From Romanomermis culicivorax (taxonomy: Eukaryota > Nematoda > Enoplea > Mermithida > Mermithidae): a stretch of 64,000 bases of DNA. Made by a program: the position numbers and the translations under genes. The notes beneath the pieces were generated by a model. It saw only the letters and a list, made by a program, of their open reading frames with translations, was not told where the DNA came from and did not search any database. The stretch spans positions 372,001-436,000 of the forward strand of contig CAWUHX010000125.1 in the NCBI GenBank assembly GCA_963922205.1, in the 5' to 3' direction. Within the stretch, counting starts at the first letter, position 1; the number at the start of each line of letters is the position of its first letter. Below are positions 34,264 through 51,250 of the stretch, in pieces.

Positions 34264-35555
34264 TATTTTTCTGTGAAACTTAACCCACTTGGTGTTGTGG
34301 TGCTGGTGTACTATAGACCCAAAATAGACGCTGAAAAAAGGGGAATAAGTAACAAAATTAATAGTATCTTTAAATGTTTAGATTACAATGTCAAGAGGGT
34401 CGTGAGGGTCCACGAACTGGATCAGTGGTTGTAAGCCACTTTTGGATATTGGCCAGCTAATCCCAAGGAACCAATCTTGGTAGACATGGGTAAAGTTGGC
34501 CAAGTACTCCACTATATCCGAGAAGTATCCATCTTCAGACGACAGTCAGTTTGTGGATTCGACATCCAAAAGTCCATCAAGATAAAGTCGCCGCCTTGTT
34601 CAAGACGAGAGAGGTTGACAATCCAATGGGGAAGCAGTTTGCCGGATATGTAAGCTTCGCGCTAACCAATGGTCAAACATACATTATCGATACCACCAGT
34701 TTAATGGGAAAGGAATGGGTAAGTCTACATGATTTCCTAAATTTGGATATGCTATTTGCTGGATATTCGATATTAGAAGATCTGGTCAGCATATATAATG
34801 TATGCAGGTCAGGGCGAGATAATAAGGATAGGGACAAAACTGTCCCCATATGGGAACATCTTAGGAAGACCAAAGGTGGGTACTTTGATTTAGACTATTT
34901 CGCCTTGACTATGGTAGGAGTAAACCTAGAGAAAAAATGTCTTCAGATGGGTATTTGTCCCCAAACCTTCCCGTTAAAGGGATTGTTCACGAAATTTTTT
35001 TTAATAGATGTTGGACCCTACCAATATGACTTCTCACTAAAGGCCAACTGTGATCAGTTTGCCAAAAGAGGAATTTTGCCGGAAGAGCTTAGATATGCAG
35101 CTCTAGAGGCATACTATTCATTGTTGGTCATGTTTGCTGTGGTTCATTATGGCATGGCTGATCAACTGCTAATGCAAATGCAGGTGTTCAATCATGACAA
35201 AGTGGATCCCAAACAGATCAACAACGTCGCCCTTTATTCTTACCAACAATATTCAACCATACCAAGGCACGTAAACAGAGAAATGGGACTAGGTTCCCAA
35301 GTGATGGAAACCAATCAGGTACAGCCCAACTTGGTGTACCACTTGATGAAATGTGAGATGTATAACCCTTGGGCAGTTCAAATGCAGGGAAGTAACACAG
35401 GTTACTATACCGCACTTGCGGAATGTAACCCTGTCCGTCCTCAGGGCATACCATTGCCTAGTGGTTTTTATCCGCTACTCCAGAGAGATAGCAAGCCACT
35501 AAAAGATGACGGGTATAGCGATAACAGTGACCTCCACGAGATATGGGATGTATAA
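34264..35555 (+). pseudogene. DEDD-type 3'-5' exonuclease-like domain, plus-strand copy
   Basis: Frame 1 (34264-34560, with TAA 34432) then frame 3 (34551-35555) read a protein homologous to 50581-51250 on the minus strand. Shared blocks are YNVKRxVRV, GFD/GFN near 34555, VDNP, then TYIIDTTSLM / FVVDTMVVM. An exonuclease fold is suggested by three features. There is a GFDIQ block at the DxE position (Glu replaced by Gln). GYSILEDLVSIYN has the second-motif Asp. RYAALEAYYSLL corresponds to YxxxD with Asp replaced by Glu. If the fold is right, most catalytic acids are lost here. I know no family with this exact protein; RNase D/WRN-like or Egalitarian/EXD-like folds are the best analogies. Confidence 0.6.
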
Positions 35556-36420
35556 GTCCCCGACTGGGTAAATGTCAGCAAAGATATACTGGAAAATCTC
35601 AAAGCAGGTAGGTCTTATTGGGATTTAGACAGTAAAATAACATTGACCCTTTATGAAAACGCCAAGCTATACTGGGAACAAGCAGGGAAGCCCAATGAGA
35701 TTCTGCAAGATGCATTTTCGAGTAAGAATCACTACCCAGTTGATATAGAAGGTCATGAGGAAGCCTATAAGACAAACTTTTAGGCGCAAAATTTGGCCAA
35801 AATAATGGGTACGCTAGATGAACAAAAATTTACGGAGTTAGAGCAGATCTGCAGATTCATGCCATTGGACTATAATTTGGCATGGCCTCATTCTAGAGCG
35901 GAGCACGACTATGAAACATCTGCGTTGCTAAACTTTAAATTTCTAAATAGTTAAAGTAAGGACGGCCAGGAAGCAATTAAACGCATTTCCGTGAAGTCAT
36001 GCGACCACCTGGCTTACTGTTTAGAGTTAGCAGCCACGTTGCCGCCATCAGAACCTCGAGTCTCGAGTGCCAACCAAGAAAGGGGTATATCCATGGCAAA
36101 ATCAGTTTGGATTTGTCCCGTTATGATTTAGGGAAGCCGAAGAAACCCTACAAATCAGCGACTACAAATCGTTGTTGAAGGACAAAGCCTATAAGGTAAA
36201 TCCTTATTATTATGTAACCTTTTACTACATAGACTTCGCGACTTTATCACCAGGATTGCGGTATCCCATGGGGAAGATGCTGATCCAGTCAATTATCCAA
36301 CAGCATACGCACCACGAAATCAGCTCGTAATCAGACTGGAATTTGTTACCAACAGTTTCTGGGAGAAAACGCTGGCTTTGGACATGCCTGGGTATAGGTT
36401 AACATATACCTCCCCCCCGG
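35556..36420 (+). pseudogene. Continuation of the exonuclease-like protein, middle domain
   Basis: Past TAA 35553 the same frame reads on (TAG 35779, then TAA) with a block DYNLAWPHSR that matches FHLFWPHSR in the minus copy. After frame changes come YKVNPYYYVTFYYIDFATLSPGL (positions about 36196-36255) and FWEKTLALDMPGY, matching YKNNPYCYQRFFFGQIAVRLPGL and FFENILPLDQPGI. The order of blocks is conserved between copies, so this was one long protein. It has no recognised domain. Confidence 0.55.
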
Positions 36421-37096
36421 TGAGTTAGTTTCAAAAGTACTGTTAAATCGTCCCTCAACTTCCCAAACAGCGCAAGCTGGAGGGTCGGGACAGGTTAAAG
36501 TACAGCCGCAAGCGCCAGCACCGGTAGTCAAAGCACAACAACTAGCTTTGCACACTGGAGCTGCGCAAGCTGCTGCAGTAGTAGTTGCCGTGCCGCCACC
36601 AATGCAACCAGCAGTGGCACAGCTGACTCCAGTAGCCCAGGTACAACAACCAGCAGAACCTGAACCAGAAGTAGTCACCATTATGCAGACTGTACCTCCG
36701 GCACCAGTTGTTTTACCACCTAAAATAAAACAACTGTTGCCCAAGATACTTAATTCAGACTCCTAGTCCAGTTTGGAGGAGGATGAAGAAGAAGATGGTG
36801 AGATTCTGGAGTCTGAGGGCCAGACATTAGAGGACAAGGACTCCATGGAGGCCAAAACTCAGCAGCAGGAAATTGAGGAGGAAAAAATCCAAACTCAAAT
36901 AGATGAAGCCGCAACAAAAATGTCGGGAAGTGATGTCAGACTGGATAAGATGCAAGAGGCATCCCAGGAGATACCTGTCAAAGCTAAGGATCCTCAAGAT
37001 TTTGATCTGCAAGCGATGCAAGAGGCTCAGAAAATGATGCCTACAATACAGCCAAAGAAACAACGACCCCCGAAGTTTCGACAAGTCAAAGGTTGA
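36421..37096 (+). pseudogene. Pro/Gln/Ala-rich to acidic linker
   Basis: Frame 2 encodes a low-complexity stretch rich in Pro, Gln, Val and Ala, then an acidic segment (EEDEEEDGEILESEG) and a Glu/Lys/Gln helix-forming part. It corresponds in position to the coiled-coil linker at 48198-49316 of the other copy. Here TAG 36763 interrupts it. It is probably a disordered connector between the two conserved regions. Confidence 0.5.
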
Positions 37097-49316: not shown

Positions 49317-49365
49317 CTTTTCCTTTGATTTTTTTCCTGGTGTCCTCGCTCAGATCAATGGGAAA

Positions 49366-50514
49366 TCATAAACCTGGCAGTCGGACTGCTATTTGGCCAA
49401 AAAAAAATCTTTGGTAGCAGTACGGATTGTTCTTGTACTGCAGACACTCGGCCAAATGGTTCCGCTTCTCTTCCAGCTTCGACGCCCAGGATTTGGTCTT
49501 TGGCCAAAATCGAATTGGTATGAACCCGAAATGATTTCTCCAGCAAGTAATTGCATCGCCCTTGGTTGGCATATGCACTTCCGTCCCTGGCAAACTATTT
49601 TTAAAAGCTAAGTATTGACCATACCTATCTCCTCTCCACAACATTTTCAAAAGTAGCTCCTTTCCCTCTGGGCTAAAGGACTTCAAATAGTTAATAGTCA
49701 AGGAGAGAGGTCAGGTACTCTTCTGCCTCTTCTCTACTATGTGGCCAAAACAAATGAAACGTAAGGGGAATTTTATTGCATACTTCCTCCAAATTCTTAA
49801 AATTGTGTTTAACCAATATTTCAGAATATGGAGCGATATCCATCCTCCAGTGTTGTCTTACGTAGGAGTCTTTACCATTCATTATATTGACTGGTTCATA
49901 TTCCTGGTAATCAACTTCTAGAGATGTAATCTCCAACAGTTGCTGGGTCTCCTTCCTTTACCTTAGGAAGTTTTCATACAATACCATGGATACTGGTTCA
50001 TCAAGTTTATTAAACCCTTTTCCTTGATTAACCATATCCACTACCTTCTTTGTAATTCGAGCTCTAATCTGCTTTTCCGACAAAGCTTCTTCGAACTCTT
50101 CATCCTCACTCAAGGTATCATACCCCTCAACATTCTTACTTTTTTCCTTGACGATATAATCAGGGTGAATCCCCATCGGGATACTCATGGCTCTACCTCT
50201 ATTCGGATTTGCTTCGTAATGAGGGAAGCAGTACTCTGTATGGCCTCCAAATGAGGTCTCCAACTGGGCGGCCATACGGGCATACATCTCCTGCCTCATT
50301 ACGTGATACACACATGATGATTGTGGCTCTTCCACTTCCGGGCTTCCACAAGAGGTTTGCGGGAAGTTCTCCATTGAATCATATTAAAAAACCTGTACAA
50401 CCTGAAAGCCATAAGCTGAATTTGGTCTGCTTTCATCAAATCATGCAGAAAGTACTGGAATCGGACCTCGACTTCCATAGCTAACTCATAATGGAAAAAT
50501 GCTAGGAAAACCAA
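49366..50514 (-). pseudogene. Middle part of the exonuclease-like protein, minus copy
   Basis: Overlapping frames (50514-50299, 50374-49958, 49936-49691, 49701-49366) carry blocks in the same order as the plus copy. These are VFLAFFHYELA, CVYHVMRQEMYARMAAQL (plus: LVYHLMKCEMYNPWAVQM), YEANPNRGRAMSIPMGIHP, an acidic stretch (YDTLSEDEEFEE), FWPHSREEAEEYL and YKNNPYCYQRFFFG. Several single-base shifts separate them, so no intact protein can be made from this copy. No known domain recognised. Confidence 0.58.
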
Positions 50515-51250
50515 TAATGAGTAGTATCCATCCAGTGCTGAATACCTAATTTCAAACTGTGCTAAATTATACCTACAGAATCACTCACATTGCATTCTCT
50601 GACAGAAATCAATTTGAAAATAACCAATATCTGCCAGATATAGCTCCGTGTACAACCCTTTCGGCTTAAATGTTTCGGGGCAAAGTCCCAACTTCCTGGA
50701 CAGTGCCAAAAACCTTCCATTCAACTGGTCTCCTACCTTGGCTACATCATAATAATGGCCATATGAAGACATAACTCTATGCTTAATTTCTGCTGTTAAA
50801 TCAACACCTTGGTTCTTTCTACCGGCGCCATTAATGTTCCAAATGGCAACCAGATCTGTAACCAAGTTGTATCCAATGATAAGCATGTCCGAATCTAGGA
50901 GCTCATGAATGAGCATCCATTCCTTTGGCATGACTACCATAGTATCTACAACAAAGGTATCTCCAGTCACCATTGAAAAGCTAATGATACTTGCGAACTC
51001 CTTCCCTTATGGGTTATCAACCCCAGAAGTTGCAAAGGCCTTACTGACGTACTCTTGAGTTACCTTTTCGGTGTTGAAACCTGCTATCCTTCAGTGTTTC
51101 GATTAACTCAGCCACCTTACCTATTTGGACCATTTTCGGCTCAGTTAGTTCCAATGGGTACCTGCTGAAGTTTGTTGCAAACCATCGATCCAATTTGCTG
51201 ACTCTGACAATGCGTTTAACATTGTAGTTTTAACATTGTAGTTAAAAATT
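50515..51250 (-). pseudogene. DEDD-type 3'-5' exonuclease-like domain, minus copy
   Basis: Reading leftward on the minus strand: YNVKRIVRVSKLDRWF, IGKVAELIETLKDS, then GFNTEKV (first motif: Asp replaced by Asn, Glu kept), VDNP, FVVDTMVVMPKEW, GYNLVTDLVAIWN (second motif, Asp kept), LGLCPETFKPKGLYTE, and after TGA 50584 the third motif RYSALDGYYSLL (Tyr-x3-Asp intact, DEDDy type). Each copy has kept different catalytic positions, suggesting that the ancestor was an active nuclease. Stops and frameshifts break this copy. The family assignment is inference from motif order. Confidence 0.6.

What the first reader, a model, noticed from the sequence alone, without database searches (positions are those of the whole stretch)
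34264..51250. Two inverted, diverged copies of an unrecognised multi-domain gene
34.26-38.57 kb (+) and 46.9-51.25 kb (-) share the same blocks in the same order: exonuclease-like domain, FWPHSR-type block, PYYY/PYCY block, linker, a ~150-residue DYW..QGGF domain and an RG-rich tail. Both are broken by stops and shifts, yet clearly homologous across more than 1000 residues. I cannot assign a family. They may be a multicopy selfish gene or a decayed non-LTR or virus-derived unit, and this is the best candidate for an undescribed system.
Basis: partly seen in the sequence, partly recalled or inferred. Interest (0 to 1): 0.85.

Follow-up and report, generated by a model that had tools for sequence, protein, structure and literature searches.

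The report
Worm retrotransposon third gene, exonuclease-like
The two broken gene copies are the last gene of two related families of large jumping elements (LTR retrotransposons) in a parasitic worm; the gene probably begins with an RNA- or DNA-trimming enzyme domain and otherwise resembles nothing found in the databases searched.

Summary
Both copies are real. At least 33 and 38 genomic copies were scored (33 of 825 and 38 of 458 candidates). The gene is ORF3, between pol and the 3' LTR of elements of about 14.0-14.6 kb with paired LTRs and 4-bp target duplications (perfect in 4 of 6 copies read). In family 1, ORF3 (about 1,500 codons) begins at a 3' splice site kept in 11 of 11 copies, in phase with a 5' splice site eight codons into gag kept in 6 of 6, so it is probably made from a spliced mRNA with the gag AUG. 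Its first domain resembles DEDDy 3'-5' exonucleases (motifs in order; PolA-type profile beats 100 of 100 shuffles), but Pfam support is weak and the fold was not testable. Other domains have no relative outside this species. Selection on ORF3 domains is as strict as on pol. Closest known: DEDDy ORF3s of bdelloid rotifer elements; CERV of C. elegans Cer1. New variant of a known kind.

The parts
33835..39876 (+). copy 1: 3' fragment of a family-1 Ty3/gypsy LTR element (end of the pol-ORF3 spacer, ORF3, 3' untranslated part, 3' LTR); its gag and pol are not in the window
   Evidence: blastn to family-1 stretches of four other copies, 77-87% identical
34382..35262 (+). copy 1 ORF3, start (proposed second exon) and DEDDy-exonuclease-like block, broken
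   Evidence: acceptor position; tblastn; motif tally; profile comparison
35263..36410 (+). copy 1 ORF3, middle block (FWPHSR, PYYY), broken
   Evidence: tblastn; dN/dS of this block 0.17 over 28 pairs of 8 copies
36407..37368 (+). copy 1 ORF3, acidic and repetitive linker, with a deletion of about 340 bp near 37,026
37369..37905 (+). copy 1 ORF3, DYW..QGGF domain
   Evidence: 35% identical to copy 2
37906..38570 (+). copy 1 ORF3, RG-rich tail
39281..39876 (+). 3' LTR of copy 1 (TG..CA ends)
45703..46194 (-). 3' LTR of copy 2 (family 2)
   Evidence: matches both LTRs of the family-2 copy on C475; edge at 45,703 repeated in other copies
47020..48252 (-). copy 2 ORF3, last linker, DYW..QGGF domain and RG-rich tail (410-aa open frame)
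48198..49349 (-). copy 2 ORF3, linker and coiled-coil-like stretch
   Evidence: open frame; position between matched blocks
49336..50353 (-). copy 2 ORF3, middle block
   Evidence: tblastn
50356..51235 (-). copy 2 ORF3, start and DEDDy-exonuclease-like block
   Evidence: tblastn; other family-2 copies
52140..56757 (-). broken gypsy pol upstream of copy 2 (RT, integrase)
   Evidence: open frames; Integrase_H2C2 E 1.4e-16 and rve E 1.1e-10; 67-73% nucleotide identity to family-1 pol

Best explanation
The two regions are the ORF3 genes of two related Ty3/gypsy LTR retrotransposon families (about 14.6 and 14.0 kb) of the mermithid nematode Romanomermis culicivorax. Shown: LTR pairs, 4-bp target duplications, gag-PR-RT-RNaseH-IN-ORF3 order, multicopy state, purifying selection on ORF3, and conserved in-phase splice sites in family 1. 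Inferred: ORF3 is translated from a spliced subgenomic mRNA that takes its AUG and first eight codons from gag; its first domain is a DEDDy-type 3'-5' exonuclease; and the RG-rich tail helps it bind RNA. The most likely role is in the element's RNA stage: an RNA-binding nuclease made early from the spliced message, which acts on the element's own RNA or cDNA 3' ends or on RNAs that threaten it.
For: LTR pairs of 616-625 bp, 93-96% identical, in four of the ten family-1 copies fetched, plus a partial pair (91%) in a fifth. Perfect 4-bp duplications in those four; 3 of 4 bases in the fifth and in the one family-2 copy read (LTR pair 506 bp, 92.5%). PR, RT, RNase H and IN by Pfam in family 1. 33 loci scored of 825 candidates for family 1, 38 of 458 for family 2. 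3' splice site kept in 11 of 11 family-1 copies, 5' splice site kept in 6 of 6 read, both phase 1. R. culicivorax gene models P0003 and P0002 join at the same acceptor, and P0003 has eight residues before it, the same number as here. dN/dS over 28 pairs of the same 8 copies: exonuclease block 0.16, middle 0.17, DYW 0.17, against gag 0.22, RT-RNaseH 0.22, IN 0.18. DxE, D, YxxxD in order in both families; intact at D 8 of 9, E 8 of 10, D 9 of 10, Y 10 of 10, D 7 of 10 copies. Profile comparison with PolA-type exonucleases scores 31.4 and 36.0, above 100 of 100 column shuffles (best 20.4 and 26.4), with the first and last motifs in register.
Against: Database support for the exonuclease is weak: PF01612 in 1 of 17 members, E 0.028, 1 of 31 (where two other families scored better, one from a chimeric gene model); no exonuclease among solved structures. 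Against enterobacterial RNase D the score was not significant (4 of 60 and 33 of 60 shuffles reached it), and with narrow profiles neither comparison stood out from unrelated controls. hhalign probability is only 54% and 21%, against 94.7% for the RNase D versus PolA positive control. In family 2 the acceptor is present in 5 of 8 copies examined and no donor was identified in the 2 gag starts read. No RNA data were available.
Confidence: 0.8

Rival explanations
1. ORF3 is a structural or export factor, not an active enzyme: a nuclease-derived fold kept for RNA binding, doing for this element what CERV does for C. elegans Cer1 (nuclear export of unspliced genomic RNA).
For: Same position and same production logic, a spliced mRNA sharing the gag start (Cer1 in PMC10309623, sections 6, 9, 15 read). 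RG-rich tail and disordered linkers suit RNA binding. Inactive DEDD derivatives that bind RNA are named in the discussion of PMC5408684 (Maelstrom, EXD1).
Against: Catalytic-type residues are kept in most copies. CERV is 517 residues with H, M and G domains by that paper, and nothing like an exonuclease is described there. ORF3 was not compared with CERV by sequence.
Confidence: 0.3
2. ORF3 is a counter-silencing nuclease that degrades small RNAs or RdRP products aimed at the element.
For: DEDDy-like domain plus RG-rich tail; strict selection on ORF3. In R. culicivorax no piRNAs or PIWI and no 5'-triphosphate small RNAs were found, and clade I keeps an RRF-3-type RdRP, so silencing must rest on other small RNAs (PMC4323106, passages). 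The genome is mostly transposable elements (289 of 359 Mb by PMC10879605, passages).
Against: No functional data. PMC5408684 raises the opposite, self-limiting role of a mut-7-like activity as well.
Confidence: 0.25
3. ORF3 is an envelope-like gene for spread between cells.
For: Position after pol and production from a spliced mRNA are those of env.
Against: No envelope family in Pfam matches of ORF3 pieces; the blocks are rich in charged and glutamine/proline-rich linkers. Transmembrane segments were not computed.
Confidence: 0.03
4. A host gene family (not an element gene) that happens to be duplicated.
For: Gene-model pieces are annotated in R. culicivorax, some fused to host genes such as a mitochondrial carrier.
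Against: Copies share pol, LTRs and edges with target duplications; all are degraded repeats.
Confidence: 0.01

Closest known systems
DEDDy-exonuclease ORF3 of bdelloid rotifer LTR retrotransposons (Juno, Vesta), PMC5408684
   Same: Third ORF after pol in LTR elements; DEDDy/RNase-D-like exonuclease motifs; not an envelope.
   Different: Here a nematode host, about 1,500 codons with several further orphan domains, and a gag-AUG splice arrangement. No rotifer protein was found by similarity, so common descent is not shown.
CERV of Cer1 (C. elegans Ty3/gypsy element), PMC10309623
   Same: Nematode gypsy element; extra protein from a spliced mRNA that shares the gag start.
   Different: CERV is 517 residues from 5 exons with H, M and G domains; no exonuclease-like domain described. 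Not compared by sequence.
Family A DNA polymerase 3'-5' exonuclease domain / RNase D (PF01612)
   Same: Order of motifs and a profile match to PolA-type domains above shuffles.
   Different: Below Pfam's curated threshold; no significant match to the RNase D set used; fused to element-specific domains.

Membership tests
Ty3/gypsy LTR retrotransposon | paired LTRs with TG..CA ends | tested here: met
   4 complete pairs and 1 partial pair among 10 family-1 copies fetched; 1 of 1 family-2 copy tested
Ty3/gypsy LTR retrotransposon | short target-site duplication | tested here: met
   4 bp, perfect in 4 of 6 copies read, 3 of 4 bases in the other two
Ty3/gypsy LTR retrotransposon | protease, RT, RNase H, integrase in that order | tested here: met
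   Pfam matches in successive open pieces of family-1 copies
Ty3/gypsy LTR retrotransposon | tRNA primer binding site after the 5' LTR | not tested
   a conserved TGGTGG-starting stretch follows the LTR, but no tRNA was matched to it
DEDDy 3'-5' exonuclease superfamily | ExoI DxE, ExoII D, ExoIII YxxxD in order | tested here: met
   both families; tally over 10 copies. That these motifs define the family is recalled and agrees
DEDDy 3'-5' exonuclease superfamily | sequence-profile similarity to known members | tested here: inconclusive
   PolA-type: above 100 of 100 shuffles; RNase D: not significant; Pfam PF01612 E 0.028 in 1 of 17
DEDDy 3'-5' exonuclease superfamily | RNase-H-like fold | not testable with these tools
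   structure prediction switched off
DEDDy 3'-5' exonuclease superfamily | exonuclease activity | not testable with these tools
   bench assay needed
bdelloid Juno/Vesta DEDDy ORF3 | ORF after pol in an LTR element, exonuclease type | tested here: met
   for position; exonuclease type with the caveats above
bdelloid Juno/Vesta DEDDy ORF3 | detectable homology to those ORF3s | tested here: not met
   46 of 47 hits at E up to 10 are named R. culicivorax, the 47th name is cut off; the search needs shared 5-residue words, so distant kinship is not excluded
Cer1/CERV-type spliced accessory gene | spliced mRNA sharing the gag start | tested here: inconclusive
   in-phase conserved splice sites in family 1 and matching gene models, but no RNA data; family 2 donor not found
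Cer1/CERV-type spliced accessory gene | H, M and G domains | not tested
   no CERV sequence was fetched
envelope gene | viral glycoprotein homology | tested here: not met
   no envelope family

The most novel reading that the evidence does not exclude
These nematode gypsy elements carry a self-encoded, spliced, RNA-binding DEDDy exonuclease of about 1,500 residues, unrelated by detectable sequence to the rotifer ORF3s, that protects the element by destroying the small RNAs or templates of the host's PIWI-less silencing system; this would be a counter-silencing nuclease of an LTR retrotransposon and could help explain how the genome came to be mostly transposable elements.
Probability: 0.2. Interest if true: 0.85.

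Novelty: new variant of a known kind. Interest (0 to 1): 0.5.

Why it matters
Exonuclease ORF3s in LTR elements were described in bdelloid rotifers. A second, sequence-unrelated case in a nematode, under selection as strict as pol's and apparently made by splicing from the gag AUG, would suggest that such nucleases are useful to retroelements rather than accidental captures. R. culicivorax has small-RNA data and lacks piRNAs, so a link to silencing can be tested.

Tried and rejected
Inverted duplication: rejected; the copies belong to two families about 40% alike in the exonuclease block and each family has its own set of genomic copies.

Non-LTR or stand-alone gene: rejected by LTRs and target duplications.

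Direct database identification of ORF3: Pfam gave nothing on the long pieces, solved structures nothing relevant. Chance-level Pfam and NCBIfam names (for example Abhydrolase_9, Tyrosinase_C, Pox_M2, prenyltransferase, LipS2) were set aside; the Ribo_biogen_C match comes with a member (P0013) that the database itself lists with that domain.

Profile comparison: one search was run with a wrong (global) option and is disregarded; with narrow profiles was not significant; one search stopped with an error after giving the real scores (30.1, 30.5) and those of the reversed alignment (22.3, 23.1); searches are the ones used. The scan of viral contigs with RNase D found no relative.

Family-2 donor site: eight further stretches fetched for it held no gag start (5, 3; checked). 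Rfam: nothing in 30,000-58,000. Host exonuclease genes (PF01612) and a protein-level search for further families in the own genome did not complete.

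Full report
Setting. The window is part of an assembly of 359,112,060 bases in 595 contigs. The R. culicivorax v2 assembly is listed as 359.1 Mb in 595 scaffolds (PMC10879605, passages), and a UniRef protein of R. culicivorax (P0006) is identical to the window over stretches of 92 and 84 residues. The window is therefore from this mermithid nematode.

Observation. The two blocks are homologous along their length. Copy 1 (+) is 66-81% and copy 2 (-) 32-44% identical to a third copy, by stretch. Copy 1 has 7 and copy 2 has 5 in-frame stops in the aligned stretches, with several changes of frame. 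Both are decayed.

What they are. The copy-1 gene hits 33 scored loci (of 825 candidates) at 80-87% over its first part, and the copy-2 gene 38 scored loci (of 458), 26 of them nearly full length, at 80-88% (counts are lower bounds by the tool's own statement). Ten family-1 copies were fetched with flanks. Four have a pair of LTRs of 616-625 bp (93.4-95.9% identical), a fifth a partial pair (532 bp, 91.2%); the distance between LTR edges is about 14.6 kb. The four complete ones have perfect 4-bp target duplications, the fifth matches in 3 of 4 bases. In one family-2 copy the LTRs are 506 bp, 92.5% identical and 14.0 kb apart edge to edge, and the flanking 4 bp agree in 3 of 4 bases. Pfam places protease, RT, RNase H and integrase in successive open pieces of family-1 copies. 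The gene thus lies between pol and the 3' LTR of Ty3/gypsy-type elements. In the window, copy 1 is a 3' fragment (33,835-39,876, LTR 39,281-39,876). Copy 2 retains a broken pol and its 3' LTR (46,194-45,703), while no 5' LTR or gag leader was found for it in the window.

How ORF3 is made. No start codon precedes the conserved N-terminal residues. In 11 of 11 family-1 copies read (10 fetched and copy 1) a pyrimidine-AG stands just before the first conserved codon remnant, and in 6 of 6 gag starts aligned a GT donor stands eight codons and one base into gag. Both are phase 1 and rejoin as a single codon. Database gene models P0003 and P0002 join at the same acceptor, P0003 after eight residues as here. 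In family 2 the acceptor is present in 5 copies, absent in two (one of them copy 2 of the window), and one stretch was not homologous, 8 examined; no donor was identified in the two gag starts read. The splicing model is thus well supported by sequence in family 1 and open in family 2. No RNA evidence was available.

What ORF3 encodes. The first domain carries, in order, DxE, D and YxxxD in both families; over 10 family-1 copies the residues are intact in 8 of 9, 8 of 10, 9 of 10, 10 of 10 and 7 of 10. Compared with a profile of 15 PolA-type exonucleases (E. coli and 14 from viral contigs), the ORF3 profiles scored 31.4 (both families) and 36.0 (family 2), against best shuffled scores of 20.4 and 26.4 in 100 shuffles each, with the first and last motifs in register. 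Against this: hhalign probabilities are only 21% and 54%, the positive control RNase D versus PolA reached 94.7%, RNase D itself was not matched (4 of 60 and 33 of 60 shuffles reached the score), and PF01612 appears in only 1 of 17 members at E 0.028. I put the exonuclease-type fold at about 0.75-0.8 and activity lower. The middle block, the linkers, the DYW..QGGF domain and the RG-rich tail have no assignment. Searches of 5.8 billion proteins returned 3, 47 and 19 hits, named R. culicivorax except one whose name was cut off.

Selection. Over the same 8 copies and 28 pairs (15 pairs for the C-terminal linker), dN/dS is 0.16 (exonuclease block), 0.17 (middle), 0.17 (DYW), 0.28 and 0.24 (linkers), against 0.22 (gag), 0.22 (RT-RNase H) and 0.18 (IN). 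An earlier, less filtered count over up to 55 pairs gave 0.17, 0.21, 0.17, 0.28, 0.34 and 0.31, 0.35, 0.26. The ORF3 domains were therefore kept as strictly as pol while the families spread.

Function. Three readings fit: processing of element RNA or cDNA ends, counter-silencing, or RNA binding and export as in Cer1. In C. elegans Cer1, CERV is made from a spliced mRNA sharing the gag start and is needed for export of genomic RNA (PMC10309623; abstract and sections 6, 9, 15 read). In R. culicivorax itself, no piRNA pathway and no 5'-triphosphate small RNAs were found (PMC4323106, passages). Which role applies is not shown by anything here.

Compared with the known. DEDDy ORF3s in LTR elements were described in bdelloid Juno and Vesta elements and shared with Athena elements (PMC5408684; abstract, first part of Results, Discussion and figure legends read). 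Six literature searches listed no report of such a gene in a nematode; the library holds open-licence papers only. I therefore rate it a new variant of a known kind.

Noticed in passing
window 6,427-15,266 (+): Another LTR element (LTRs 96% alike) with a CCHC gag frame, then a Monjiviricetes-type fusion glycoprotein (PF24664, E 9.8e-18) lying between gag and protease-RT-integrase: an envelope gene before pol, an unusual gene order.
   Followed up: partly
window 3-4,343 (+): An open 1,446-residue gypsy pol frame with protease, RT, RNase H and integrase domains, much less decayed than the elements of the finding and about 69% identical in part of pol to them.
   Followed up: no
window 22,507-28,205 (+): A 101-bp direct repeat pair (95%) around a gypsy RT/RNase H stretch with no sign of ORF3: possibly a related element lacking it.
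   Followed up: no
L009-L028 (family-1 copies): On the same 8 copies synonymous divergence is about 0.5 in the first two ORF3 blocks but about 0.27 in gag and RT; raw distances 0.135-0.140 against 0.09-0.10. ORF3 may be exchanged between subfamilies by recombination.
   Followed up: partly
family-1 and family-2 leaders, e.g. L017 just after the 5' LTR: The stretch after the 5' LTR starts AGTGGTGG and in family 1 holds a short inverted repeat around the presumed primer site; the primer tRNA was not identified.
   Followed up: no
P0001, P0013: R. culicivorax database gene models fuse ORF3 pieces to host domains (mitochondrial carrier, Tsr3 C-terminal domain): likely annotation chimeras.
   Followed up: no
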